From positions 1,984,001-2,048,000 of the forward strand of contig NZ_CP147505.1 of NCBI RefSeq assembly GCF_037201915.1: DNA of 64,000 nucleotides, read 5' to 3'. The stretch's first letter is position 1. Every line of letters starts with the position of its first letter. Both the position numbers and the translations under genes were made by a program. Positions 18,187-53,694 of this stretch are shown here, piece by piece. The notes under the pieces were generated by a model. It did not search any database. It was not told where the DNA came from and saw only the letters and a program-made list of their open reading frames with translations. Source of the stretch: Haloplanus sp. CK5-1. Lineage in GTDB: Archaea; Halobacteriota; Halobacteria; Halobacteriales; Haloferacaceae.

Positions 18187-19255
18187 GAGGGTGTCATAGA
18201 ACTCTTCTCACACCGTGATGATTGTGCTTCCCGGATTGTCTCCGCGTTCGTAGTTGGTGATTGCGACGACGAGGCGCAGACACAACGCGAGGAACACCTG
18301 CGCTCGTGCATGGACGCGGCCTCGGGCGTGCGTTCGCCCGAGGCCGCAGCCCTTGACTGATTCGTTGGTTCGTTCGACGCCACTCCGGCGGTTGTACGTC
18401 TCGTCTAGCGTTGATTGCTTCAGCTGAACGTCGTTGCTGTGTTTTTCAATGCGGTCTTCTACCCTGTACTCGATATCTTTCGGGTCGTCGGTGTTTCGTG
18501 GATTGTACGGAGCGACTGGCACGACCCCTGCGGCCAGCAGGTGGTCGTGCCAGTCGAGCGTGTCGTAGGCACTGTCTCCAAGCATCCACATCGGTTTCCC
18601 GACGGCGAGCGCGTCACGCGTGACGCGCATCGCCGTCTCTTCTGGTGCTTGTTTGCTCTCGGTGAACTCGGCTGCAATCGGGATCTTTTGCCCGGTTGAG
18701 ACGATCGTGCAGCCGTAGCCGTAGTAGTACTCGTCATCGGTTGGATCATAGCACTTCGATGCGTCTGGATCGGCGGGCATCGCTCTCACGTCGGTTGAAT
18801 CGATAGAATACGTCAAGTCGAGCAGGCCCCGCAAGGCGGCCTGCTCGACGAGATGGTCGAAGACCCGGTCAACAACGTGCTCAAGATCAGTGAGGAATCG
18901 ATCGACCGCGTCTCTCGACGGCGGTCGATCGAAGCTACAGCTGAGCCAGACAACGGTGTTGTTCAGTTCTCGTGCAACCGGACGGATACCGTAGATGTTC
19001 TTGTAATAGCAATGGAGAAAGCCACGCATCATCTCGGGCGGCTCAAGATCTCGTGTTCGCCCCGTCTCCGCCGGGGCGAACACGTCGAACCCTTCAAGAA
19101 ACTCGAAGGAGAGGTGCTCGAACAACGCCAACGTCTCCGTTTCCACGGCATTGAAGAACGATTCTACCGAAGGATCATCTTGCAGGGTCGCTGAACTCAT
19201 TCCACCTCAGCGTTCACCCTGCTCTTTGGTATGCGAACTGTTCTATGACACCCTC
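18187..19255 (-). mobile_element. IS5-superfamily insertion sequence (1069 bp)
   Basis: Ends GAGGGTGTCATAGAAC and its complement GTTCTATGACACCCTC form the inverted repeat. A 7-bp duplication TATTGAG flanks the element at 18180-18186 and 19256-19262. It encodes one transposase on the minus strand. Related inverted-repeat remnants occur at 41318 and 44669. Confidence 0.9.
18208..19200 (-). CDS. DDE transposase, IS5-like (330 aa)
   Basis: Intact transposase filling the IS that splits the restriction gene. It starts MSSATLQDDPSVESFF. Catalytic acids are seen in YSIDSTDVRAMPADPDASK, WMLGDSAYDTLDWHD and GVERTNESVKGCGLGR, and the C-terminus LCLRLVVAITNYERGDNPG is shared with the frameshifted relic at 44455-44693. 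A tyrosine-rich DEYYYGYGCTIV stretch follows the first Asp. Length and DDE spacing match haloarchaeal IS5-superfamily elements; the exact subgroup is not claimed. Confidence 0.88.
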   Translation of the reverse strand: MSSATLQDDPSVESFFNAVETETLALFEHLSFEFLEGFDVFAPAETGRTRDLEPPEMMRGFLHCYYKNIYGIRPVARELNNTVVWLSCSFDRPPSRDAVDRFLTDLEHVVDRVFDHLVEQAALRGLLDLTYSIDSTDVRAMPADPDASKCYDPTDDEYYYGYGCTIVSTGQKIPIAAEFTESKQAPEETAMRVTRDALAVGKPMWMLGDSAYDTLDWHDHLLAAGVVPVAPYNPRNTDDPKDIEYRVEDRIEKHSNDVQLKQSTLDETYNRRSGVERTNESVKGCGLGRTHARGRVHARAQVFLALCLRLVVAITNYERGDNPGSTIITV

Positions 19256-21032
19256 TATTGAGGCCAAGCGGCCCAGCGGAGATACCGCCCAACGAGAGAT
19301 CGATCCCTACGCCCCGTCCGTGATACGTCAGGCGTTCAACTACGCCGCTGAACTCGGAGCACCCTACTTCGCGACGTATAATGGCGACCGTTTCGTGCTT
19401 TTCCGCACCTTCGAGGAAGGCCGCCAGCTTCTCCAACGGTCGACGAAGTCCTACGTAGTCACGGGCGTCGAGAAATTCGCCGATACGATTCTCGACGAGA
19501 TAGCCCGACTCGAAGCGGACGAGAACAAATGGGACAGTCTTGACGACGCCTTCATTCAGCGTATCCGGAGCCTCCACGAGCTGATCACGCCAGAACTCGA
19601 AGCGGCTCTTGCAGATCGCCTCAGCGACGATGAGTCGTTCCGCGCCTCGTTCGTTTCGTGGGCGAACGCCCAAGGACTCGAATACGATGACGGGGACAGC
19701 GAGGATCGCGAGATGATCCGCGAGAACTTCGCTGAGCAGGCGGCGTATCTTCTGGTGAACAAGATCGTCTTCTACAAGATCCTCGAAAACTCCGACGCCT
19801 ACGGGGACGACATCCGGCCCCTCGCTGTTAGCATCCACCGTGTTCGCGCTGATTTAGAGGAACACTTCGAGGACGTCGTCGACGAGATCGCCTCGCTCGT
19901 AGAGGAAGACACTGAGCCGAACCAGATGATTCGCACCGAAAACTACCGCCTCGTCACGAGAACCCAGCACGCGCTTCGTGACGAACAAAAATGGAGTGTC
20001 TTCTTCAACGCGCCGGCGGTATACTTCGACATCGTCGGACAGGAAGACATCGTTTCCCTTTCGGAAGTTGCCGAGGTCACAAGAGGATTCACCAGCGGAG
20101 CAAACGATTTCTACTACGGACGGATGGAGGAGTGGGAAGAACTGGGCTTAGAGCAGTACACCGAACCCCTTCTGAAAGCCACGGGCCAAGTTGATCGAAT
20201 CCTATTTAATGACGACGTAGCCGACGAGTGGAGCTATTTGGAGATTCATGACCTCGTCAAGGAGGCGCTTAATGACGATGATGAATATCTTGATGTATCT
20301 GAGGCCGACCGAGTCAAAGAGTGGTTAGCGACGAACGGTCACACGGATCTCGCTGAGTACATCGAGTGGGGGGAGGATCAGGGATACCATGATCGACCCA
20401 CTACCTCCGCACGAGACATCTGGTTCGACCTCGGAGGTGCTGAAACAGCTCCAATCATTATGACTGATTTCACTTGGCGCGAACACCGAGTCGTGTGGAA
20501 TAACGTTGGGGCTCTTGGGAGTACACAATTCTACTACGTCGTACCGGACGATGATGTCGATCCGAAGGTTTTGTGTGGCATCCTCAACTCGCGGCTCGTC
20601 TGGTTGATGTCGGAACTCAAGCGCCGGTGGGCAGAGGGACAGGGTATGGCCCGATCCCGGCTGAAGGTCTACGAAACTGAACAGCTCCCCATCCCCGACC
20701 CGCGGGGACTCACAGTTGAAGAGCGAGAGCGCATCGTGGACTGTTTTGAGGCGCTGATGGACCGTGAGGTGGAACTCGGCGAAGACGCGTCTGTCGAGGC
20801 TACTGAGTCCGAACGAGATTCGCTTGATTCCGCGGTCTTGGAGCCCCTCGGAATGTCTGAACGGCTCGACGAAATCAAGGAAGGCGTTGAGCGTATGGTC
20901 GCAATGCGTGAGCAGGCCGCCGGCGAGGATACTAACGTACTCATTGAGCGGCCCGAGGAGACCGAAGTCATCGAACTTGAAGGCGTCTCGGAGGCCCGTG
21001 AGAGCACCACGCTCGGTGATTTCCAATAGCCG

Positions 21033-24111: not shown

Positions 24112-24150
24112 GCCGGCACGAGTGCGCCGGCACCTATCGCCGGTGCTCTA
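24112..24150. repeat. Conserved GC-rich element, copy 1
   Basis: GCGCCGGCACCTATCGCCGG is shared almost base for base with 32230-32256. In both places it lies just upstream of a minus-strand hypothetical gene and downstream of the same protein family (a decayed fragment here). It includes a short stem (GGCACC/GGTGCT). Could be a shared leader or promoter-proximal element. Confidence 0.5.
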
Positions 24151-24175
24151 ATAAACATACTCAAATGTGTGCTCG

Positions 24176-24322
24176 CTAAACATCGTCTCTGTTCGACTCT
24201 GTGGCCTCCTTGACGGTGATCGTCAGGTTATGGCTCTCGCAATCAGCTTCGAAACCGACGGCGAAGGAATCCACCCCGCGAGCTGCGTGGGAGGTGCGGT
24301 GCTGTTTAGCCAATTCTGTTTT
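24176..24322 (-). pseudogene. 3' fragment of a paralogue of the 140-aa protein at 32286
   Basis: Translating the minus strand gives AKQHRTSHAARGVDSFAV then GFEADCESHNLTITVKEATE before TAG. This aligns with the C-terminus of the intact protein at 32286-32708 (LERHRAYHAAYESDAFAV, DFEADYASGDLTITVERA). Upstream the frame is closed by a TAG within a few codons, so only about 45 codons survive. It is a remnant of an ancestral duplication or of recombination between two plasmid-type segments. Confidence 0.7.
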
Positions 24323-24375
24323 CTAACAGGATCAGGTGATCTATTAAGAGCAGATAGTCGCAGGTGTGAATGAAA

Positions 24376-24795
24376 CTAATCTTCGATTTCGTCGAAGGAG
24401 ATCCCTCTGATACGATATTGATGTTTCCCTTCGATGTCTTTGCGACGAGTTGCCCGTTCTGAGTCGGTAATGATTAGTACTGGACTTGAGCGACCGTCTC
24501 GCCGGGCGTAATTCTTAAGATCTGGAATTGCTGCCGACACGGATGTTTCAACTTCGATTAATGACAAAGGAAACTTCCCGAAGAAATCTGCGCCCAGCAT
24601 CGAGAAATTGCGTATGTCAACAATGAGGTCTGGTGCTCCTGACTGTCCGTCGAAGTGGCGGCGATCCACCGACAAGTCTCCGAGTTTTTCTTCGCAACCG
24701 TTTTTCCGAACCACTAACTCCGCGTCATCGTACTTCTCTTTCAGACATTCGTACGTATCCGCAACGATCTCGTTGTGCTCGTAGGCATCAGTCAT
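24376..24795 (-). CDS. Small PD-(D/E)xK-like protein, fourth gene of the ATPase operon
   Basis: 139 residues starting MTDAYEHNEIVADTYECLKE. The middle reads GAPDLIVDIRNF then FPLSLIEVETSVSAAIPDL and PVLIITDSE, a strand-acid-strand-acid order like that of PD-(D/E)xK nucleases, although the usual Lys is replaced (E-V-E-T). This could be an active nuclease variant or a DNA-binding derivative. It follows the 521-aa gene after one base, so it is translated from the same mRNA as the ATPase and the two helical proteins. Function inferred only from fold pattern and context. Confidence 0.6.
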   Translation of the reverse strand: MTDAYEHNEIVADTYECLKEKYDDAELVVRKNGCEEKLGDLSVDRRHFDGQSGAPDLIVDIRNFSMLGADFFGKFPLSLIEVETSVSAAIPDLKNYARRDGRSSPVLIITDSERATRRKDIEGKHQYRIRGISFDEIED

Positions 24796-24796
24796 G

Positions 24797-26341
24797 TTAC
24801 GCGCCCTCGATCGAGATGGAGACTAAACCTTCATGCTTGAGGTCATGAATGACTCCAAGGACTTCCGTCTGGTCCATCTCTAAGTCATCAGAAATCGACT
24901 TGATTACATCGCTGTTCGCACCCTTGTTTGCTTCCCCATCTAATATGAACTCGAATACACTCGCTTGTGTTGGATCGAGATGGTCCTCAGTGATAATGTC
25001 CGTAATCTCGGTGCGGATCGTTCGGCACTTCCGTGCCTGGTGCACGAGGTTTTCGACAGTCTCTGCTCGGGATACGGCTAGTTCAACTTCATTGAGTGAT
25101 TGGGCTTTTTGATCGATTCCGAATATCTCGGCCAGTTCTTTTCCGGTTTGGATTTCATGTTCAATTCTATTTCTGAGGCCCTTGAGTTCCTGTTCTGCCT
25201 TTTCAATCAGTTCGGAGAAACCCTCCTGTGCTTCGTCGTAGTCCTCTATATCCCCACTGAGTATCTTGTCACGGGTAGCGAGAAGATCACTATGTTTAGT
25301 ATCAATTCTCGATAAGGACGTTTGGATAAAATCGAGCGACTCCGTCGAGTTATCGGGTACTCCAAATCGACTGACAGACTCGGTAGCAACGTCGTTCATC
25401 ACATCGAAAATAGAGAGGACCTCACGACAACCAGTAACTACATCATCAACAGTTTCGGCGGCTCGTAATCTGTTTTCTAGCTCATCTTGTCCGGTGTCGG
25501 TTGGAGAACCCACTGACACTTCGATCAGTAACTCGTATCGTTCGTGGAGTTCAGATACGACATTCCCGGCGTCTGAGAGAGTCTTGTCTGCTTCGAGGAC
25601 ACGCTCGCGAGCCAGTGTCGTGAACTGATCGAAGGCATTCGCGTCGTCGACAATTGATTGGATCCGGTCGAAGAGTAAATCATCAATACGGGTACGAACA
25701 CTCGATCCCAACGGCTCTGGGAGGTCACTGTTCCAGGGATACGGCCACCGCTCTGCAATATCTTCCAGCTCATCCGCGATATTATCAATCCTATCAACGT
25801 TACTTACATCGACCAGTTCTTCTTTGATCAACCGAGCTATTGAGGTGTGTACCGTCCCTCCATCAGCATTGATTGACTGCAAGGCGGTTTTTGCAGTGTC
25901 AATGGCTGAGTTAACTCGATCGACATCTTGTTCGACAACCTCAATCAACTCTTCTCTGATATTCTCATCAAGGGGGCCTGTTCCAGCGTTAACCAACCAA
26001 TCTTCGATATCTTCGACCGTTTTTTCAGCCTCGGGATGATGGAGGACACTTCGAAAGTCTGCCACAAAGTCCTCAAGAGCATCTTCGAATCCACCTGGTT
26101 TGAACGATGCGGAGCCCGCAACGAGATTTTCGAAGACATCTCCCAATGAGCGATCGAAGGCCTCTCGTACCATCTTCTGCTCTTCTTTGTCGAGATTATC
26201 CAGTGTCGACCTCGTTTCTTCGTCCAACTCGTCAAGGGTGTCTTCAAGATCATCCAATGCAGTCTTCTCGTCGTGGATGTCTTGCTCTACCTCTAGCGCC
26301 TTCTCAAGAGTGCTGAGGGTGTCTGGACTAGCATCACTCAT
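24797..26341 (-). CDS. Coiled-coil protein with C-terminal winged helix, third gene of the ATPase operon
   Basis: About 514 residues from ATG 26341 (MSDASPDTLSTLEKALE); an ATG 21 bases upstream is an alternative. Nearly all helical: an acidic coiled coil at residues 10-70, further heptad-like regions around 330-420, and a C-terminal winged-helix pattern (about 460-514: DPTQASVFEFILDGEANKG, EMDQTEVLGVIHDLKHEGL). No enzymatic motif is visible. Its start overlaps the end of the 551-aa gene by eight bases. Helical scaffold plus winged helix next to an ATPase suggests a complex that loads on or senses DNA, loosely like kleisin or MukE-type partners; that is inference. Confidence 0.7.
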   Translation of the reverse strand: MSDASPDTLSTLEKALEVEQDIHDEKTALDDLEDTLDELDEETRSTLDNLDKEEQKMVREAFDRSLGDVFENLVAGSASFKPGGFEDALEDFVADFRSVLHHPEAEKTVEDIEDWLVNAGTGPLDENIREELIEVVEQDVDRVNSAIDTAKTALQSINADGGTVHTSIARLIKEELVDVSNVDRIDNIADELEDIAERWPYPWNSDLPEPLGSSVRTRIDDLLFDRIQSIVDDANAFDQFTTLARERVLEADKTLSDAGNVVSELHERYELLIEVSVGSPTDTGQDELENRLRAAETVDDVVTGCREVLSIFDVMNDVATESVSRFGVPDNSTESLDFIQTSLSRIDTKHSDLLATRDKILSGDIEDYDEAQEGFSELIEKAEQELKGLRNRIEHEIQTGKELAEIFGIDQKAQSLNEVELAVSRAETVENLVHQARKCRTIRTEITDIITEDHLDPTQASVFEFILDGEANKGANSDVIKSISDDLEMDQTEVLGVIHDLKHEGLVSISIEGA

Positions 26342-27989
26342 CGTTGACCTCCATGTGTTCACTTAGAGTCTGAAGTTGGGTCCGTCTGCTTTCACGTTCT
26401 GTTTCGAGTTCGCCAATTTCACCAGCGAGCCGTTCCAGCTGATCAACAACTTGGAATACCTCGTCAATGTCTTGGCGTGCATCTGTTAACATTTCATCCC
26501 ACTCATCCTGAATATCGCGGATATCGTCTGCTTTATTCGAGAAATCAAGGCCAGGGAGTTCTGATTTCACTTCTTCGAGAACTGTCTCGCACCTTTCCTC
26601 GACCGTATCTTTTACAGCGTCTTTTCGCGGGAGATCGATATTCACCGAACTGGCCTCGATCGTCGCATATGCAGAGTCAATGTCGTCTATCTTCGTTTTT
26701 GTCCGGTCGGCGAGACTCTGGAAACGATTCGTGTGTTCGCCGAGGTCTGTTTCTCGGGATTCGAGTTCTTGACGTCGGTCGTCGATATTCTCCTGAAGGG
26801 TCGAATACAGACTAGAACGTCCCTCACGATCGTATCCAAGCACGAATTTTGCAGTGGGTTGTGAAATCCGGTCTGCGACCCGACAGAACTCTCGGAGATC
26901 ACCGACGACACTAGAGTCGTGTTGGATTTTCCCACTGGGATACACCGAGCTATGGTCTTCAATACGATCGTATACTGAATCGAGTTGATCGATCGTCTCA
27001 TCAAGAGATTCTTTTGCTTGGTCGTACTCAACATTGATTTTGTCTTTCTTATCTTGGATGACCTGAATCGCATCGACCATTCGAACTAGCAAGTCTGCGA
27101 GATTAGATCCAGTACCGTCATATTGGTTCGAGAGAACTCGAAGGAGGCCTGGCTCTTGCATGTATGTTGTTGCCAAATCTGCGCGAGGCGAAAGCCGGTT
27201 GAGTTTCGTTCGGAGATTTAGCGTATCGGCCTCCTCTGCCTTTTGAATCGCCGTGGTGAATTCCGAACGGAAGTCGTTCTGCCGCTGATCGTATCCGTAT
27301 TCAATGATACGCGTGTAACCACCCCCACCCCCCGAAATTGGGCCCAGATATTTTTTAGAGTCTAGACCTCGGTCACGCGCTGTCTCAAAGAACCTAAGAC
27401 ACCTATCTCGTTCTTCGGAAGCGGCACGTGCCAACAGTAGATAATCGACACGGGCGTTCTGGGAGGCTGTCAACCGATTCTCGAACAAATCGAATAGCTC
27501 TGTAGAGCTTTGATCTCCCAAGGTGACGGGAAAGAGTGTTTTGAGATTCTCCTGGAACTCGTCCGTCTGCTGTTCAATCCTCGTTGCGAAGTACTCGTTG
27601 AGCTTTTCGATGTAGTAATCAATTTTCCGAACACCCTCGTCGGCGATGTCGTCTCGACTGATCGTCTCCGGGATGGGGGCTGTCTGATCTAGTTCTAGTA
27701 GATTGTACAGAAGACTGGTCGCAAAGGTGTCCAACCGTCGTTCGTCGAGTGTTGTGACTTGGAGCTGATCGAGTTCGGCGGCTACTTGAATACGTTCGTC
27801 GCTGTTGGAAATGACCTCCTGAGTGGCAGTCTCGACATCCTGGATGTCGTCGTCGTTCCCGAGGAGTACGATCGCGAATATACAATTTGGCTCAAGCGCG
27901 TCTTTGGCGACTTTATCCTGTAAAAACGGCTGAACCAGGGATTCAAGCGCCGGCTCTTCGGCCGGAACGGGATAGAGTGAAGAGTTCAT
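26334..27989 (-). CDS. Long helical protein, second gene of the ATPase operon
   Basis: 551 residues, starting MNSSLYPVPAEEPALESLVQ. The N-terminal third has a possible alpha/beta unit (CIFAIVLLGNDDDIQDVETA). A Gly-rich loop GPISGGGGGYTRIIEYGY lies at about 210-227. The rest is mostly heptad-rich helix, strongest at about 315-350, 420-450 and 480-545 (QVVDQLERLAGEIGELETER). No Walker or nuclease motif is seen. It overlaps the ATPase stop by four bases (ATGA) and the next gene by eight, so stoichiometric expression is likely. I do not recognise a family. Together with the next gene it could form a heterodimeric coiled-coil assembly. Confidence 0.7.
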   Translation of the reverse strand: MNSSLYPVPAEEPALESLVQPFLQDKVAKDALEPNCIFAIVLLGNDDDIQDVETATQEVISNSDERIQVAAELDQLQVTTLDERRLDTFATSLLYNLLELDQTAPIPETISRDDIADEGVRKIDYYIEKLNEYFATRIEQQTDEFQENLKTLFPVTLGDQSSTELFDLFENRLTASQNARVDYLLLARAASEERDRCLRFFETARDRGLDSKKYLGPISGGGGGYTRIIEYGYDQRQNDFRSEFTTAIQKAEEADTLNLRTKLNRLSPRADLATTYMQEPGLLRVLSNQYDGTGSNLADLLVRMVDAIQVIQDKKDKINVEYDQAKESLDETIDQLDSVYDRIEDHSSVYPSGKIQHDSSVVGDLREFCRVADRISQPTAKFVLGYDREGRSSLYSTLQENIDDRRQELESRETDLGEHTNRFQSLADRTKTKIDDIDSAYATIEASSVNIDLPRKDAVKDTVEERCETVLEEVKSELPGLDFSNKADDIRDIQDEWDEMLTDARQDIDEVFQVVDQLERLAGEIGELETERESRRTQLQTLSEHMEVNDE

Positions 27990-29650
27990 CGGGGATCCTC
28001 CTGAATAGTGTCACCGAATTCTTGCAACCGATCTGATGCAGCCTGCATATTCTCCAGCATCGTAACTAGTTCCTGATACTGGTCGTCCGTGTTCGTTTCG
28101 TGTCCTGCAAAACTCAATCGTGGATTCGTAATGAGACTCGGGAATGCTAGACTCGGCGTCTTCAGGCCAATCGATACGTAAGAATCCATCGTGGAGGATT
28201 CGCTCGTCGAAAAGAGGTCGAAGAAGTCAGCGAAGTCTTGATATATATCTTGTGCGCTCATTTGATCAAGACTCTGCGTGACATCATAGAGGAACTCAAT
28301 AGTCTCCTCTTCCTCGTTACCTAATTCTTCAAGAGCAATATCGTGCATCCGGCGAACGAGCGGACGAAGGATCATATCAACAGCCCTATCTCCTTGTGCT
28401 GGGGCTGGACTCATGATCTGTCCGAAGACCATTTCTCCGTCTTCGTCAGCGATACTTTGGAGTACCCTCTCTCCAAATTGTGAGAGCTGCGAATCAGATA
28501 CTCCGGAGTGATACGCATCCAAGTCCGTTAATCCCTTTTCAATTGTTCTGTATACCTCTCCGACAGGTGTTAGATGTGTGTCACAAAGCGCGAAATCGGT
28601 AGCTTCTGACTGAAGTGCAGACTGGAAGGCCGCCGGTTCATCAAATTCGCTAAGCTGATGGGGTGAAGGAGTGGTGAGGAGGGCCGCGATACGATCGCGT
28701 GATTTGTTGCTGAGTTCGTCGAGATATGAGTCCAGACTCTCTCTATCCAAGACTTCAACACGGGAAATTTGTTGCGTTGCAATATCGAAAAGACGGTTGT
28801 AGTTGCCTTCAACACCGTCTCCGAGGTTAGCTTTTGCATCGAGAGCCGATTGTAGCCAGCCGGGGCGTCCCCGTGAGTGCCACCAAGCGTAGTTTTCGGT
28901 CCCGGCAGACAAGTCACGTTCGAGGATTTGGTGAACTTGTCTCGGACGGATAATCGGCAGATTGATGCTCTGGACTCGCCGCGCTTCTGCTTCACCAAGT
29001 TCGTGAGCGCTGGCGTAGCCAAACGCGCCGATCATGTATACTCGGGAAGTCCCTTTGTCAATTTCGTCGACGACCTCTCGGAGAGGGCCAGTCGTTCCTT
29101 CCGTGTGTTCATCTAGCCGTTTATATCCCTCTTCCATCTCGTCGACAAGAACAATGAGTTCGTTTTCCTTCGACGCAATCTGTTCAGGGTCCTCCACTCC
29201 AAGTTCCGAGAAATACTCGTCGGGAGTGGGTCGCTGGCGGGCTCTCGGTAGATAGTCGTCGGTATCGAAGGTCTCGTTCTGTTCGATCTTGTTGCGTATC
29301 TCTCGGAGCCTCTCGATACAGATATCCTCAAAGTATCCATGGAGATTCGATTGATGGATGATACCGTGTCCGTCGGCTTCGGCTCGCTGGACGAGTTCGT
29401 CAATGAGATCACTAAGATCAAGATAGATAGCTGGCTTGGCCTGGTCTTGCCAAGCATATCTGAATCCGTGTAGGAGTAGCAAGCTCTTGCCTGCCCCAAT
29501 AGCTCCCACGGCGTATGTGGCCTCAACTGGGTCGGGGAACTGTTCGATGTTCGCTTCGACCGTTTCTCGGCACAGTCTGTGTCTCTTAGTCAGGTCTTTC
29601 CACTCGACATTCAGCGTCGCTGTACGTTTTATCCCTCTACTTTTGCTCAT
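27986..29650 (-). CDS. P-loop ATPase, first gene of a four-gene operon
   Basis: 554 residues, MSKSRGIKRTATLNVEWKDL. Walker A is GAIGAGKSLLLLHG at about 49-62. Walker B is ELIVLVDEMEEGYKRLDEH near 165-183, where D-E-M-E carries the catalytic acid. A sensor-1-like strand VYMIGAFGYAS follows at about 204-214. This is an AAA+/STAND-type layout with the ATPase in the N-terminal half and a mostly helical C-terminal half. The family is not one I can name; it is not SMC-like because Walker A and B are only about 110 residues apart. The TATA box about 26 bases before the ATG makes the operon leaderless. It lies beside restriction genes, so a role in defence is plausible but unproven. Confidence 0.75.
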   Translation of the reverse strand: MSKSRGIKRTATLNVEWKDLTKRHRLCRETVEANIEQFPDPVEATYAVGAIGAGKSLLLLHGFRYAWQDQAKPAIYLDLSDLIDELVQRAEADGHGIIHQSNLHGYFEDICIERLREIRNKIEQNETFDTDDYLPRARQRPTPDEYFSELGVEDPEQIASKENELIVLVDEMEEGYKRLDEHTEGTTGPLREVVDEIDKGTSRVYMIGAFGYASAHELGEAEARRVQSINLPIIRPRQVHQILERDLSAGTENYAWWHSRGRPGWLQSALDAKANLGDGVEGNYNRLFDIATQQISRVEVLDRESLDSYLDELSNKSRDRIAALLTTPSPHQLSEFDEPAAFQSALQSEATDFALCDTHLTPVGEVYRTIEKGLTDLDAYHSGVSDSQLSQFGERVLQSIADEDGEMVFGQIMSPAPAQGDRAVDMILRPLVRRMHDIALEELGNEEEETIEFLYDVTQSLDQMSAQDIYQDFADFFDLFSTSESSTMDSYVSIGLKTPSLAFPSLITNPRLSFAGHETNTDDQYQELVTMLENMQAASDRLQEFGDTIQEDPR

Positions 29651-29670
29651 GCGTAATCATGTTGACAGCC

Positions 29671-29680
29671 TATTATAAAC
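29671..29680 (-). promoter_or_regulatory. TATA box of the four-gene ATPase operon
   Basis: On the minus strand, GTTTATAATA is centred about 26 bases before the ATG at 29650. In archaea transcription starts roughly 25 bases after the TATA box, so the mRNA would be leaderless or nearly so. The surrounding 29651-29700 stretch is AT-rich. Confidence 0.6.
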
Positions 29681-30128
29681 GTGCTTGATAAAATGTGGAC
29701 AATATGCCGCGACCATATAGTCCAAAATATCACTTCTGGAACGAGTGAACGCAGACGCTCAGAAGATCGCCCAATAACGACCAACGCTCTTCCGTAGGAG
29801 ATTCTTGATTGAATTCGCGCTTGAATCTCCATAGCTGTACGTGGCGTGGCCCCCGGCTCTCCGCAGAGAACTCAGTCCGAGACACTCAACGCGGAACCGC
29901 AAGAAGGCACGTCATCGACAATGTGCTACGCAAGAGCGAACGACCAATCTTTCAAAGGGAGATCGCTACTGAATCCAACTCTGGAACTTAATTCAAGATG
30001 TATAGTGAATGTGCTGACCTAACAGCTGTTTCACCCGTGGTTGAGTGAAAAGAACAAGGGCTGCTGTTGGCTGCATCCCCTGTATCCAGCACTTCAGTAT
30101 GGTCAGCTGTTGACCGGTTCGACAGGAC
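29681..30128. other. Gene-free stretch upstream of the ATPase operon
   Basis: No convincing gene: the few short frames have poor composition. It lies between the ATPase promoter and the stop of a zinc-binding protein gene, both on the minus strand. I see no insertion-sequence ends or strong hairpin here. Confidence 0.4.
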
Positions 30129-38664: not shown

Positions 38665-38775
38665 AACTGCGTTATTTTCTCCATCTAAATCCTGAAGCAA
38701 CCGGTAAAGCGTGCCTGCGAATTGAATGACCATGCCACCGACATCTATATCAGTATGAAAAAAGTATGAATGGAT

Positions 38776-39045
38776 ATGCCCGAACACAAACGGAAAGTCG
38801 GAAATCGGGGGCAGGTGACGATTCCGAAGGAACTGCGGGACCGTCGTGGTATTGAAGGTGGTGACGAAATCGAATTCGTCGAAGTGAATGACGAGATCAT
38901 ACTCAAACCGCCGACAGATGAGGAACGGCTTGCTGAAGGATATCGAAAGAGAGCCGAGCGGTCTCGTGAGTTGGCTGAAGAAATGGAAGAAGCATCGTCA
39001 GAAGCAACCGAGCATCTCGGTGACGCACCCGGCTGGAGCGAGTGA
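38776..39045 (+). CDS. mazE: MazE-like antitoxin (SpoVT/AbrB fold)
   Basis: From ATG 38776 (an ATG two codons earlier is also possible): MPEHKRKVGNRGQVTIPKEL then RDRRGIEGGDEIEFVEVND, the swapped-hairpin AbrB DNA-binding pattern. It is followed by an acidic helical tail (EERLAEGYRKRAERSRELAE) that would wrap the toxin. The toxin gene follows after 15 bases. Such antitoxins bind their own promoter with the toxin; AT-rich TATCAGTATGAAAAAAGTAT upstream is the probable control region. The palindromic repeat unit at 38567-38664 flanks the pair on the left and another at 39478-39576 on the right. Confidence 0.85.
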   Translation: MPEHKRKVGNRGQVTIPKELRDRRGIEGGDEIEFVEVNDEIILKPPTDEERLAEGYRKRAERSRELAEEMEEASSEATEHLGDAPGWSE

Positions 39046-39060
39046 ATTCTGGAGTCAACT

Positions 39061-39411
39061 GTGCAGGTACGCCGCGGCGACATTGTCATCGTTGAACTGA
39101 ACCCCACGAAAGGGAGTGAGCAGCAAGGAAAGAGCCGGCCCTGTGTTGTCATCCAGAACGATGTTGGGAATCAGTACTCATCGACAACCATCATCGCTCC
39201 ATTCACAACGCAGTACACGTCTGGAGACACGTACCCGTTCGAGGTGGAAGTACTGGCTTCGGATACTGCCCTCGATCACGACTCAGTGGCAGATCTAAGT
39301 CAAATCCGGGTTATCGACATCGACGAACGTGTGAAAAAGAATATTGGATCTGTCCCGTCATCGGACATGGTAAAAATCGACTCGGCAATCAAAGATAGCC
39401 TCGGCATTTGA
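39061..39411 (+). CDS. mazF: MazF/PemK-like ribonuclease toxin
   Basis: GTG start: MQVRRGDIVIVELNPTKGSE, QQGKSRPCVVIQNDVGNQYS, then TIIAPFTTQYTSGDTYPFEV, VADLSQIRVIDIDERVKK and IGSVPSSDMVKIDSAI. The RRGDIVIV and KSRPCVVIQND motifs, with the conserved Arg and Thr/Ser, are those of MazF mRNA-cleaving toxins; 116 residues is standard length. It forms an operon with the AbrB-type antitoxin 15 bases upstream. It would cut mRNA when the antitoxin is lost, thereby stabilising the surrounding DNA segment. Confidence 0.88.
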   Translation: MQVRRGDIVIVELNPTKGSEQQGKSRPCVVIQNDVGNQYSSTTIIAPFTTQYTSGDTYPFEVEVLASDTALDHDSVADLSQIRVIDIDERVKKNIGSVPSSDMVKIDSAIKDSLGI

Positions 39412-50945: not shown

Positions 50946-52298
50946 CTATTGCCGTGGTGAGAACTCAACTGCGTACTCCTTCACTAATTCAATCACATCG
51001 TAGACATGGATACCCGACTTGAACCACAAGACACGGTCATCCAGTCCATCGAAATCTTCAGACGAGCAGTCCAACCGCTCAGACACGGCGACAATAAGGT
51101 TGTCTCGGTCAGCGTTCCGTATCTTCGCCAGTTTTTCATTCAGATACTCGGGCGTCCAGAATCCGACAATCTCGAATACCACTCGGCGTCCATCAGGGTG
51201 TTCGATAGCGAAGTCCGGGAGCATTACCTCTGCTCCTAGATCCAGTACGTCATCCTCACGGACGAGTTGCCAGTCAGTGTTGGCACGTTCCCACTTTTGG
51301 GCAAGTGTGCGTTCCACATCGGAGTCAAAATCGCTCTGAGCCGAGTAGTGCGAGGAGAGTTCGTCCGTGTGGTCAAGCTCAAACGAGAGCGTTTGACTCG
51401 TTGCTCCTCCATCGTCATCAAGAATATCAGCTTCCATCTCCCAACGGTCGCACAACGGGAGAGCTGGAAGGAAGTTTGACATCCGTATTCCGTATTTCCT
51501 CGATTTCGAAAAAAGAGACGCTGCTCCATCCAGAATGGCCTCGTACCCGTCAGCAACGTCAGTACTGGAAACGCGGTTGCCGTTGGCGTCGATTGGATAG
51601 ATGCGGTGCATCAGCCCAAACAGTTTCACGTAGCTGAACACCGTCGCAAACGAGTCCCAGACTCGTACCCGCATCTCTGTCGCATCGTACAGTACTGCTT
51701 GTGCCAGAGCGAGATTGTAGCGTGTGAGAAGCCAATCGACCGTTATCGTATCCTCAGCATACGATTCCTCACTATCTCCAGTCAACCGTGTCGTGGTTGT
51801 CCCGTCGTCAGCCTTCTCATACTCATCGGACGTACGGTGTCCGAATCGTACAAGTCGCTTGTTCTCCTCTAAATCGGCGTACATGCCTCGGTAGCAGTCT
51901 TCGAGTGAGATTCCGAGCTGGTCAGCAACAGCACTGTACACCTCCAACTTTTGTGTGTCCTCACCGAGCGTGGGCTGACGTGCAATCGGGTACGAATCGT
52001 TCGCTTTCTCAAAAAGCCGCTGCCGGATCTCCTGTGGATCTACTGGTGCGACGGTTTCGAATTCGCACTCGTCTTTCAGGAGTTTCGCCAGCCCTTGTAC
52101 GATCTTGTAGTCCGTGTCTACGATAGTGAGTTGGTCTATCGTCTCCTCCAGCCTACCCTTGGATTGTCCGAGATGCTCCTCGAAGATTTGGATGAGTTCT
52201 GTTGCGGTCTCTCGGTACTGCTGGTCGTCCGCGTCGATGAACAGCGGGGAGATAGTTCCGTCGTACGTACGTGAGCGGGCGAGGTCAGCTGTCAGCAT
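50946..52298 (-). CDS. bax1: Bax1-type nuclease, XPB partner (DUF790 family)
   Basis: From ATG 52298 (MLTADLARSRTYDGTISPLF; an ATG two codons earlier is possible). It has the N-terminal DUF790 domain, with a central helical region ESYAEDTITVDWLLTRYNLA and LAQAVLYDATEMRVRVWDSF, and a C-terminal PD-(D/E)xK nuclease core: MLPDFAIEHPDGRRVVFEIV then GFWTPEYLNEKLAKIRNADR. Bax1 cuts at DNA bubbles and forks together with archaeal XPB. The start overlaps the end of the XPB gene, indicating translational coupling. Presence in accessory DNA suggests a mobile or extra copy. Family length is normal. Confidence 0.88.
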   Translation of the reverse strand: MLTADLARSRTYDGTISPLFIDADDQQYRETATELIQIFEEHLGQSKGRLEETIDQLTIVDTDYKIVQGLAKLLKDECEFETVAPVDPQEIRQRLFEKANDSYPIARQPTLGEDTQKLEVYSAVADQLGISLEDCYRGMYADLEENKRLVRFGHRTSDEYEKADDGTTTTRLTGDSEESYAEDTITVDWLLTRYNLALAQAVLYDATEMRVRVWDSFATVFSYVKLFGLMHRIYPIDANGNRVSSTDVADGYEAILDGAASLFSKSRKYGIRMSNFLPALPLCDRWEMEADILDDDGGATSQTLSFELDHTDELSSHYSAQSDFDSDVERTLAQKWERANTDWQLVREDDVLDLGAEVMLPDFAIEHPDGRRVVFEIVGFWTPEYLNEKLAKIRNADRDNLIVAVSERLDCSSEDFDGLDDRVLWFKSGIHVYDVIELVKEYAVEFSPRQ

Positions 52299-53694
52299 TA
52301 GCACTCACCCCTTTGCGTCGCCGTTCAGACACGTAGGTCTCCATCGTGTCTTCCGTGATGATTTCGTAGAGTCGGGCTGGCTGGCGGTCGTCTGTTGGAC
52401 GCAGAATCCGTCCCAGCCGTTGTGCGTACTGTCGTTTCGATGCACTTCCAGAGAGGATGACACCTACGTTTGCAGACGGTACGTCGATTCCCTCATCCAG
52501 CACCTGCGAAGTAGCAAGCATCGAGTACTTTCCTGTTCGAAATCGCTCTAGAATCTCTGTTCGCTCCTCAGTCTCGGTCTGATGCGTGATACAGGGAACA
52601 ACAAACTCTTGAGAGATCTCGTATGCAAACTCGTTGTTCGCTGTAAAGATGATGGTACGGTCGTCGTGGTGTCTCCTCAGCAGATTATCCAGCGTATCGA
52701 GTTTCTTTTCGGCGGTCCGAGCAATTTTCTCGGCTCGTTGTTTAGCGATGAGGGCGCGTCGCCCCTGCGGATCGTATGACGTGCGCTTGAGAAATTCCTG
52801 ATAGCCGCTCTCTTTCCAGAGATCAAAATCATGACTGTCGACGTAGTCGCGGTAAATCTGGTATTCCTCAGTATACTGCTCCCGTTCCTCATCAGTTAGT
52901 TCCACGCTGAGATGGAGCGTCTCGTACTCGCTGAGATACTCCCCGGCAAGTTCGTCGACTCCTTCTCGATACACAACCGTGCCCAACAGCTCCTCTAGTT
53001 CTTCATGTTTGCCGTCAGCACGCTCGTAGGTAGCCGTGAGTCCAAGTCGATACGGAGCAATCGTCATCTCAGGGATCTGTTGGTAGGTCGGTGCCGGAAG
53101 GTGGTGTACTTCGTCCACCACGAGAAGCCCGAACCGGTCGCCGTAGTCGTTGATATACCGGTACGCAGAGTCGTAGGTCGTCACCGTAATGTTGGTCACA
53201 TTGTGGCTTCCACCGCCCAAGACGCCGATTCCATCAGGGAGTTGATTCCCGAAAGCGTTTGTGAGAGTGGCGTGCCACTGGTTCATCAGGTCGATAGTCG
53301 GCACGACAACAAGCGTGCTGACACCAGCATCAGCAATTGCTTGGACGGCGAGAAACGTCTTTCCGCTTCCTGTGGGGAGGATCACACTGCCCTGACGGTT
53401 GTTATCCTGCCACGCTGAGAGTGCCTCCTGCTGGTAATCACGGGGTTCGATAGCGACAGAAGGCGTGAGATGGAACTTCGAGTACGCACGAGCCTCGTCT
53501 TCCAATTCAGTCACAGTTCCCATTGGCTGTTCAAGGCTGGCTTGCCCATCAGATCCACTCACCCACTCTCGAATGTCACGGTAATGGTGTGCCTGTGCTC
53601 GGTACTCATCAACACGGTCGTCCCACTCAGCATACGGCACAGACTCAGGAGCGTCTTCAACAAGGAGTGTCCCGTCATCAAACGAGAGACGCAT
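52285..53694 (-). CDS. xpb: XPB/Rad25-type DNA helicase
   Basis: 469-residue SF2 helicase. MRLSFDDGTLLVEDAPESVP; damage-recognition-like N-terminus, then the Q-like motif RDYQQEALSAW, Walker A VILPTGSGKTFLAVQA (about 105-120), DEVHHLP (194-200), GLTATYERADGKHEELEELL (motif III and the XPB RED-like loop), a thumb-like helical insert (260-330), and C-terminal motifs SQVLDEGIDVPSANVGVILS and YAQRLGRILRPTDD. Archaeal XPB opens DNA bubbles for Bax1 cutting in repair. Overlaps bax1 downstream; a small hypothetical gene lies upstream and may be in the same unit. Confidence 0.92.
   Translation of the reverse strand: MRLSFDDGTLLVEDAPESVPYAEWDDRVDEYRAQAHHYRDIREWVSGSDGQASLEQPMGTVTELEDEARAYSKFHLTPSVAIEPRDYQQEALSAWQDNNRQGSVILPTGSGKTFLAVQAIADAGVSTLVVVPTIDLMNQWHATLTNAFGNQLPDGIGVLGGGSHNVTNITVTTYDSAYRYINDYGDRFGLLVVDEVHHLPAPTYQQIPEMTIAPYRLGLTATYERADGKHEELEELLGTVVYREGVDELAGEYLSEYETLHLSVELTDEEREQYTEEYQIYRDYVDSHDFDLWKESGYQEFLKRTSYDPQGRRALIAKQRAEKIARTAEKKLDTLDNLLRRHHDDRTIIFTANNEFAYEISQEFVVPCITHQTETEERTEILERFRTGKYSMLATSQVLDEGIDVPSANVGVILSGSASKRQYAQRLGRILRPTDDRQPARLYEIITEDTMETYVSERRRKGVSANADS

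What the first reader, a model, noticed from the sequence alone, without database searches (positions are those of the whole stretch)
24376..29680. Four-gene ATPase / two coiled-coil / nuclease-like operon: candidate undescribed system
Genes of 554, 551, 514-521 and 139 codons overlap or touch and share a leaderless promoter. They encode a P-loop ATPase, two long helical proteins (one with a C-terminal winged helix) and a PD-(D/E)xK-like protein, inside a neighbourhood of restriction genes. None fits a defence or SMC family I can name. By analogy (inference), it may be a multi-protein DNA-sensing complex with an effector nuclease, functionally like Wadjet or BREX-type systems but of different make-up.
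Basis: partly seen in the sequence, partly recalled or inferred. Interest (0 to 1): 0.8.

Follow-up and report, generated by a model that had tools for sequence, protein, structure and literature searches.

The report
Undescribed mobile ATPase–coiled-coil operon, likely defence
A salt-loving archaeon carries a compact four-gene cassette (an ATP-burning protein, two long helical proteins and a small nuclease-like protein) that no family library knows; it jumps between distant archaea as one unit and, in relatives, is attached to several different virus- or plasmid-restriction systems, so it is probably an unrecognised part of archaeal immunity.

Summary
Four co-directional ORFs of 554, 551, 514 and 139 aa (window 29650-24376, minus strand) overlap or touch and sit behind one TATA box. 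None matches Pfam, NCBIfam, PADLOC or PHROGs convincingly. The block is a real unit: 93.6% DNA identity over 5.6 kb to a Natrialbaceae plasmid with different flanks, and purifying selection on all four genes. The gene order recurs in Haloquadratum plasmid PL100 and other haloarchaea. A second architecture fuses ATPase and first coiled-coil protein, in haloarchaea and one Firmicutes MAG. The family is sporadic: 11 of 392 order genomes, none of 11 congeners.

In relatives the ATPase/coiled-coil core abuts, or shares an operon with, DISARM DrmABC, AddAB-like helicase-nucleases, a Pbe-type system, type I RM or solitary DNA methyltransferases. The small protein occurs only beside the ATPase but is replaceable.

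Two corrections. The ATPase is an AAA+/ORC-STAND-type P-loop protein, not SMC or BrxC. The 'nuclease' keeps PD…E but lacks the catalytic Lys in all nine homologues (ExE in eight), so catalysis is unproven.

Defence role likely; mechanism inferred; no experiment.

The parts
27986..29650 (-). ATPase (554 aa): Walker A GAIGAGKS (G54, K55), Walker B LIVLVDEME (D170, E171), invariant LR (R191), R225 and WWxxRGR (W256, W257, G261, R262)
   Evidence: AF2 pLDDT 77, best PDB fold hit 2QEN (P. abyssi Walker-type ATPase) E 4.6e-5, then ORC/Cdc6/DnaA/Avs3/RFC-type AAA+; weak nSTAND_NTPase5/AAA_16/ATPase_2 hits in family members
26334..27989 (-). CC1 (551 aa), long helical/coiled-coil protein; homologous to the C-terminal half of the fused long-type ATPase
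   Evidence: hhalign A11 vs A14 probability 98.0, E 1.8e-13 over 497 columns; 4-nt overlap with ATPase in all six short-type loci
24797..26341 (-). CC2 (514 aa), long helical protein with a possible C-terminal winged-helix-like segment (about 470-510)
   Evidence: short- and long-type CC2 profiles match, probability 95.9, E 6e-9; winged helix only weakly indicated (DUF2250 E 0.18; F-93_WHD in one homologue)
24376..24795 (-). NUC-like protein (139 aa): signature RRx[FW]x4G[AV]PD ... PxLxExE ... D; alpha-beta4-alpha model; PD-(D/E)xK-like but without Lys
   Evidence: found only next to the ATPase, 7 of 7 hits in 392 genomes
29671..29680 (-). TATA-like box GTTTATAATA, 21-30 nt upstream of the ATPase start (probable leaderless promoter)
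   Evidence: sequence identical in L029
24123..29739 (.). extent of the transferred block: 93.6% identity to Natrialbaceae archaeon AArc-T1-2 plasmid, flanks rearranged

Best explanation
A horizontally moving anti-MGE (virus/plasmid) module built on an AAA+ ATPase of the ORC/STAND type and two coiled-coil subunits. Shown: four-gene unit, Walker ATPase, ATPase-CC1 fusion in other lineages, transfer as a block, purifying selection, coupling of relatives to DISARM, AddAB-like, Pbe-like, type I RM and methyltransferase genes. Inferred: ATPase and CC1 form one functional body, because they are a single protein in the long type. CC2 completes an elongated DNA-contacting platform. ATP binding/hydrolysis loads or moves this platform on incoming DNA. 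It then positions an effector, here the small PD-(D/E)xK-like protein, and in relatives apparently DrmABC, AddAB or PbeA/C.
For: Block conservation and order in haloarchaeal loci and a Firmicutes MAG. 93.6% DNA identity across families with shuffled flanks. dN/dS 0.07-0.20. Sporadic: 12 hits in 392, one of them false, and 0 of 11 congeners. Plasmid-borne twice. DISARM DrmA/B/C plus C5 MTase beside the core in L030, and DrmB/C-like genes with C5 MTase and a weak DrmE hit in L031. AddB/AddA beside it in L007 and L032. PbeA and an AAA_23/SMC-like ABC ATPase (PbeC-like) downstream of NUC in L036, NUC to PbeA translationally coupled. Type I RM and SIR2 (PDC-S25) in L033; N4/N6 MTase in L034/L035; C5-MTase-like gene plus nicking-endonuclease-like gene in L006. 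ATPase-CC1 fusion.
Against: No experiment; the defence role rests on context. NUC lacks the catalytic Lys and its fold match is not significant. Pyrodictiaceae homologues (L008-L011, L013, L015) sit in ordinary chromosomal surroundings, recurrently near the same HAD-like gene, which could mean a housekeeping role there. AddB occurs in 5 of 146 haloarchaea without a detected module, so that pairing is optional. DNA-binding by CC2 is not demonstrated.
Confidence: 0.55

Rival explanations
1. A plasmid or chromosome maintenance machine: an ORC-like ATPase with coiled-coil partners that organises, segregates or stabilises DNA, with no immune role.
For: Two close relatives are on plasmids. ATPase fold resembles ORC/Cdc6/DnaA/RFC. 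Pyrodictiaceae relatives are in stable non-defence chromosomal places.
Against: Most haloarchaeal copies are not near replication or partition genes but beside restriction and defence genes; patchy presence with 0 of 11 congeners; no virus and few plasmid hits.
Confidence: 0.15
2. A STAND-type sensor that recognises an invader protein and triggers NUC as an abortive, self-harming effector.
For: Weak nSTAND_NTPase5 hits in 10 of 17 family members; Avs3 among the fold hits; small separate putative nuclease.
Against: No TPR/LRR-type sensor region was recognised; the effector is a separate gene and is missing in several loci; no catalytic Lys; no PADLOC model matched the ATPase.
Confidence: 0.12
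3. An accessory specificity or regulatory factor for neighbouring restriction-modification enzymes, inactive on its own.
For: Repeated adjacency to different MTase/restriction systems; in L030/L031 it lies beside DISARM-type genes and lacks NUC.
Against: In the window and on the two plasmids it travels as a four-gene block without an intact methyltransferase recognised beside it, and the window genome has no DrmA match.
Confidence: 0.13

Closest known systems
DISARM (DrmA/DrmB/DrmC with methyltransferase)
   Same: Core directly beside DrmABC and a C5 MTase in L030 and beside related genes in L031; restriction-like setting
   Different: Window genome has no DrmA match; ATPase, CC1 and CC2 are not DISARM subunits in PADLOC
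Pbe / CxC ABC-ATPase system (PMC6459918, PMC10853773)
   Same: In L036 the ATPase+CC1, CC2 and NUC genes run into a PbeA-type helicase with an ABC ATPase gene downstream; haloarchaeal
   Different: The module's ATPase is not an ABC-type ATPase; no PbeA or PbeC in the window block
BREX BrxC-BrxB-PglZ
   Same: AAA+ ATPase with partner proteins; BrxC complex 9ZLL appears among Foldseek hits at E 4e-3
   Different: No BrxC model hit; hhalign with BrxC/PglY does not align the ATPase domains; no PglZ/PglX/BrxL found in the block
Wadjet/MksBEFG (JetABCD)
   Same: Analogy only: ATPase, coiled coils, possible winged helix, possible nuclease
   Different: No SMC/ABC ATPase, no Toprim nuclease, no PADLOC hit
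CoCoNuT / McrBC type IV systems (PMC11090510)
   Same: Coiled coils, NTPase and nuclease-like parts; other restriction systems attached in the same locus
   Different: No McrB-type GTPase or McrC found by the libraries

Membership tests
AAA+/STAND P-loop ATPases | Walker A and Walker B motifs and AAA+-type fold | tested here: met
   G54, K55, D170, E171 invariant in 17 homologues; AF2 model matches 2QEN E 4.6e-5
AAA+/STAND P-loop ATPases | significant match to a named STAND or AAA family | tested here: inconclusive
   nSTAND_NTPase5 in 10 of 17 members, best E 1.5e-4, far below the curated cut-off for P0001
PD-(D/E)xK nucleases | PD ... (D/E)xK with catalytic Lys | tested here: not met
   P55, D56 and E81 invariant in nine; position 83 is E in eight and A in one; no Lys
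PD-(D/E)xK nucleases | alpha-beta-beta-beta-alpha-beta fold | tested here: inconclusive
   AF2 pLDDT 75, alpha-beta4-alpha; Foldseek: no hit under E 0.1; BsmI, VRR_NUC and Hachiman among the top ten at chance level
Wadjet (JetABCD) | SMC/MukB-like ABC ATPase plus Toprim JetD | tested here: not met
   No Jet or SMC model hit above chance
BREX | BrxC ATPase with PglZ/PglX or BrxL | tested here: not met
DISARM | DrmA, DrmB and DrmC in the locus | tested here: not met
   No DrmA match in G000; met only in the relative L030
Pbe (phosphorothioate-linked) | PbeA SF2 helicase and PbeC CxC ABC ATPase, with dnd genes | tested here: not met
   P0003 vs PbeC E 0.006 is a coiled-coil-level match; no helicase or ABC ATPase in the block
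DndFGH | DptF/DptG/DptH homologues | tested here: not met
   No hit in NCBIfam or PADLOC at E <= 1
Anti-MGE defence system | protects a host against virus or plasmid | not testable with these tools
   needs infection and transformation assays

The most novel reading that the evidence does not exclude
The ATPase-CC1-CC2 core is a previously unrecognised, general-purpose immune platform: a non-SMC, ORC/STAND-like motor with a coiled-coil scaffold that archaea (and some bacteria) attach to otherwise unrelated effectors (DISARM, AddAB, Pbe, RM, a Lys-less PD-(D/E)xK protein), which defines a new class of ATP-driven DNA-interference complex.
Probability: 0.3. Interest if true: 0.9.

Novelty: new variant of a known kind. 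Interest (0 to 1): 0.68.

Why it matters
Archaeal immunity is under-catalogued: about a third of archaeal genomes show no known system beyond CRISPR and RM (PMC12988326). This module is not matched by Pfam, PADLOC or NCBIfam, and in RefSeq its four proteins are 'hypothetical'. If it is the shared motor behind several restriction systems, it would link DISARM, AddAB-like, Pbe-like and methyltransferase loci and give one experimental handle on all of them. Even if it is a stand-alone system, it is a compact, recently transferred four-gene block that can be tested in laboratory haloarchaea.

Tried and rejected
(1) Pbe membership, suggested by PbeC E 0.006 for P0003: rejected, coiled-coil bias; PbeC is a CxC ABC ATPase (PMC10853773). 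(2) BrxC kinship: hhalign A9 vs A10 matched only a C-terminal helical stretch at probability 15. (3) Solved structures by sequence: only low-level coiled-coil and P-loop matches, none for NUC. (4) Viral contigs and phage records: no relatives. (5) G222 hit (E 9.6e-4) rejected as a CobW-type P-loop protein. The five weak hits at E 1e-7 to 1e-9 in another family of the phylum cover only the Walker region and were not counted. (6) NUC versus the viral fold library: nothing significant. (7) Exclusive AddAB partnership: rejected, since AddB is found in 5 of 146 genomes without a detected module. (9) Literature searches for this combination found nothing describing it (papers read in part: PMC12458937, PMC4158269, PMC11090510, PMC12988326), but only open-licence papers are held.
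Full report
CHECK OF THE OBSERVATION. The four genes are present exactly as described, on the minus strand: ATPase 29650-27986, CC1 27989-26334, CC2 26341-24797, NUC-like 24795-24376. They overlap or touch (-4, -8, +1 nt). Shine-Dalgarno-like GGAGG stretches precede CC1 and CC2, while the ATPase has none and instead a TATA-like GTTTATAATA 21-30 nt upstream, conserved in the closest relative. That fits a leaderless transcript; it was not measured. The CC2 start is most likely the ATG (514 aa). GC is about 50% here against 60-72% in the first 12 kb of the window.

NOTHING IN THE LIBRARIES. PADLOC, Pfam, NCBIfam and PHROGs return only sub-threshold, coiled-coil or P-loop matches for the four proteins. 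RefSeq annotates the orthologues on two plasmids as hypothetical proteins.

THE BLOCK IS A UNIT. In 392 genomes of the order, 12 hit the ATPase profile; one is a false P-loop hit, leaving 11. None of 11 congeners has it. The nearest relative, on plasmid NZ_CP127176.1 of Natrialbaceae archaeon AArc-T1-2 (L029), matches window 24123-29739 at 93.6% DNA identity over 5.6 kb. The genes that flank it in the window lie in a different arrangement there. So the four genes plus promoter moved together, fairly recently, between families. dN/dS is 0.113, 0.127, 0.198 and 0.067 for ATPase, CC1, CC2 and NUC: all four are under purifying selection. The same four-gene order is in Haloquadratum walsbyi PL100 (L005) and in L006.

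TWO ARCHITECTURES. In a second clade (L007, L012, L014, L032-L036, and Firmicutes MAG L016) the first protein is about 1020-1090 aa. Its C-terminal half is homologous to CC1 (hhalign probability 98.0, E 1.8e-13, 497 columns), and its CC2 partner matches CC2 (probability 95.9, E 6e-9). Helical composition inflates such scores somewhat. But in L016 a single-sequence search with CC1 also hits the fused protein (E 1e-6), and order and overlaps agree. A tree of the ATPases gives the haloarchaeal short and long types as two supported clades.

THE ATPase. Walker A and B and a WWxxRGR motif are conserved in 17 homologues, with the key residues invariant. The AF2 model (pLDDT 77) best matches 2QEN, an archaeal Walker-type ATPase (E 4.6e-5), followed by ORC/Cdc6, Avs3, DnaA, RFC, RuvB and BrxC at E 1e-3 to 1e-2. 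Ten of 17 members hit nSTAND_NTPase5 weakly. I place it in the AAA+/ORC-STAND assemblage. It is not an SMC ATPase, and BrxC/PglY profiles do not align with it.

THE SMALL PROTEIN. It is found only beside the ATPase (7 of 7 in 392 genomes). Its signature is RRx[FW]x4G[AV]PD ... PxL[IVF]E[VIL]E ... D, with small departures. The model is alpha-beta4-alpha. This looks like a PD-(D/E)xK protein in which the Lys is replaced (ExE in eight of nine, EVA in one). Foldseek gave no significant hit; BsmI, VRR_NUC and Hachiman are in the top ten but at chance level. A BamHI-like ExE active site is possible (own knowledge), and a non-catalytic DNA-binding role is equally possible. It is absent in L030, L031 and L014, and its place is taken by an unrelated small protein in L034/L035. 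L030 and L031 form a clade nested among NUC-bearing short types, so NUC was probably lost there.

PARTNERS. L030: DrmA (E 5e-164), DrmB, DrmC, then ATPase-CC1-CC2, then a C5 MTase and a MutY-like 'nicking endonuclease'. L031: genes of matching size and sequence start to DrmB and DrmC (DrmA-like gene cut by the locus edge; not scanned), the core, a C5 MTase and a gene with a weak DrmE match. L007 and L032: AddB- and AddA-like proteins, the L007 AddA-like one with UvrD and PDDEXK_1 domains. L036: NUC overlaps a 103-aa ORF that overlaps a PbeA gene (E 3.5e-165); an AAA_23 ABC ATPase follows after 242 nt, and a D12 MTase is nearby. L033: HsdM/HsdS and a PDC-S25 SIR2 gene. L034 and L035: N6/N4 MTase. 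L006: a gene starting like the L030 C5 MTase, a nicking-endonuclease-like gene and a borderline EcoRII-C-like gene. L014: VWA, PP2C and kinase genes. Background rates: DrmA in 16 of 126 and AddB in 5 of 146 genomes of the order, so both are uncommon and immediate adjacency is unlikely by accident, although defence genes cluster.

MECHANISM (inferred). ATPase and CC1 act as one body; CC2 completes an elongated assembly; ATP cycling loads or moves it on incoming DNA; the partner (NUC here, other helicase/nuclease systems elsewhere) does the damage. I give about 0.7 to a role against mobile DNA in haloarchaea, and 0.3-0.4 to this specific working scheme. The main doubt is that Pyrodictiaceae homologues (L008-L011, L013, L015) lie in ordinary chromosomal surroundings, so part of the family may do something else.

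NOVELTY. No held paper found by my searches describes this combination, with the limit that only open-licence papers are searchable. I rate it a new variant of a known kind (multi-gene ATP-driven restriction-like systems), with a real chance that it is more.

Noticed in passing
L036:2-9612: A single run of genes joins the long-type ATPase, CC2 and NUC to a 103-aa ORF, PbeA and an ABC ATPase (PbeC-like): a composite of this module with a Pbe/CxC system; D12 methyltransferase nearby.
   Followed up: partly
L008-L011, L013, L015 (Pyrodictiaceae): Homologous ATPases in Pyrodictium/Hyperthermus relatives, followed by a ~370-aa helical protein where the contig is long enough; several lie near the same HAD-like phosphatase gene, suggesting a stable, possibly non-defence role.
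   Followed up: partly
L005:11830-14208: CC2 of Haloquadratum PL100 is 792 aa because its middle region appears duplicated.
   Followed up: no
L034:4139-4786 and L035:4049-4699: The NUC position is taken by a different 215-216 aa protein; the L034 copy has no Pfam match; possibly an alternative effector.
   Followed up: no
L007:49-3684, L032:10335-13868, L083-L085: AddB/AddA-like helicase-nuclease pairs in haloarchaea, the AddB-like member without any Pfam match above cut-off; also found without this module.
   Followed up: partly
window 50946-53694: XPB-type helicase next to a DUF790 protein (Bax1-like pair).
   Followed up: no
window 38770-39411: Probable toxin-antitoxin pair: an AbrB/MazE-like protein followed by a MazF/PemK-like protein (by eye).
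   Followed up: no
window 18208-21029: A transposase gene abuts a 594-aa C-terminal fragment of an Eco57I/TaqI-type restriction-modification enzyme: probably a truncated system.
   Followed up: partly
L014:3017-7764: VWA, PP2C and protein-kinase genes (TerY-P-like set) beside a long-type copy that lacks NUC.
   Followed up: no
L086: A relative from another part of the phylum with ATPase (apparently frameshifted or split) followed by a CC1-like gene.
   Followed up: no
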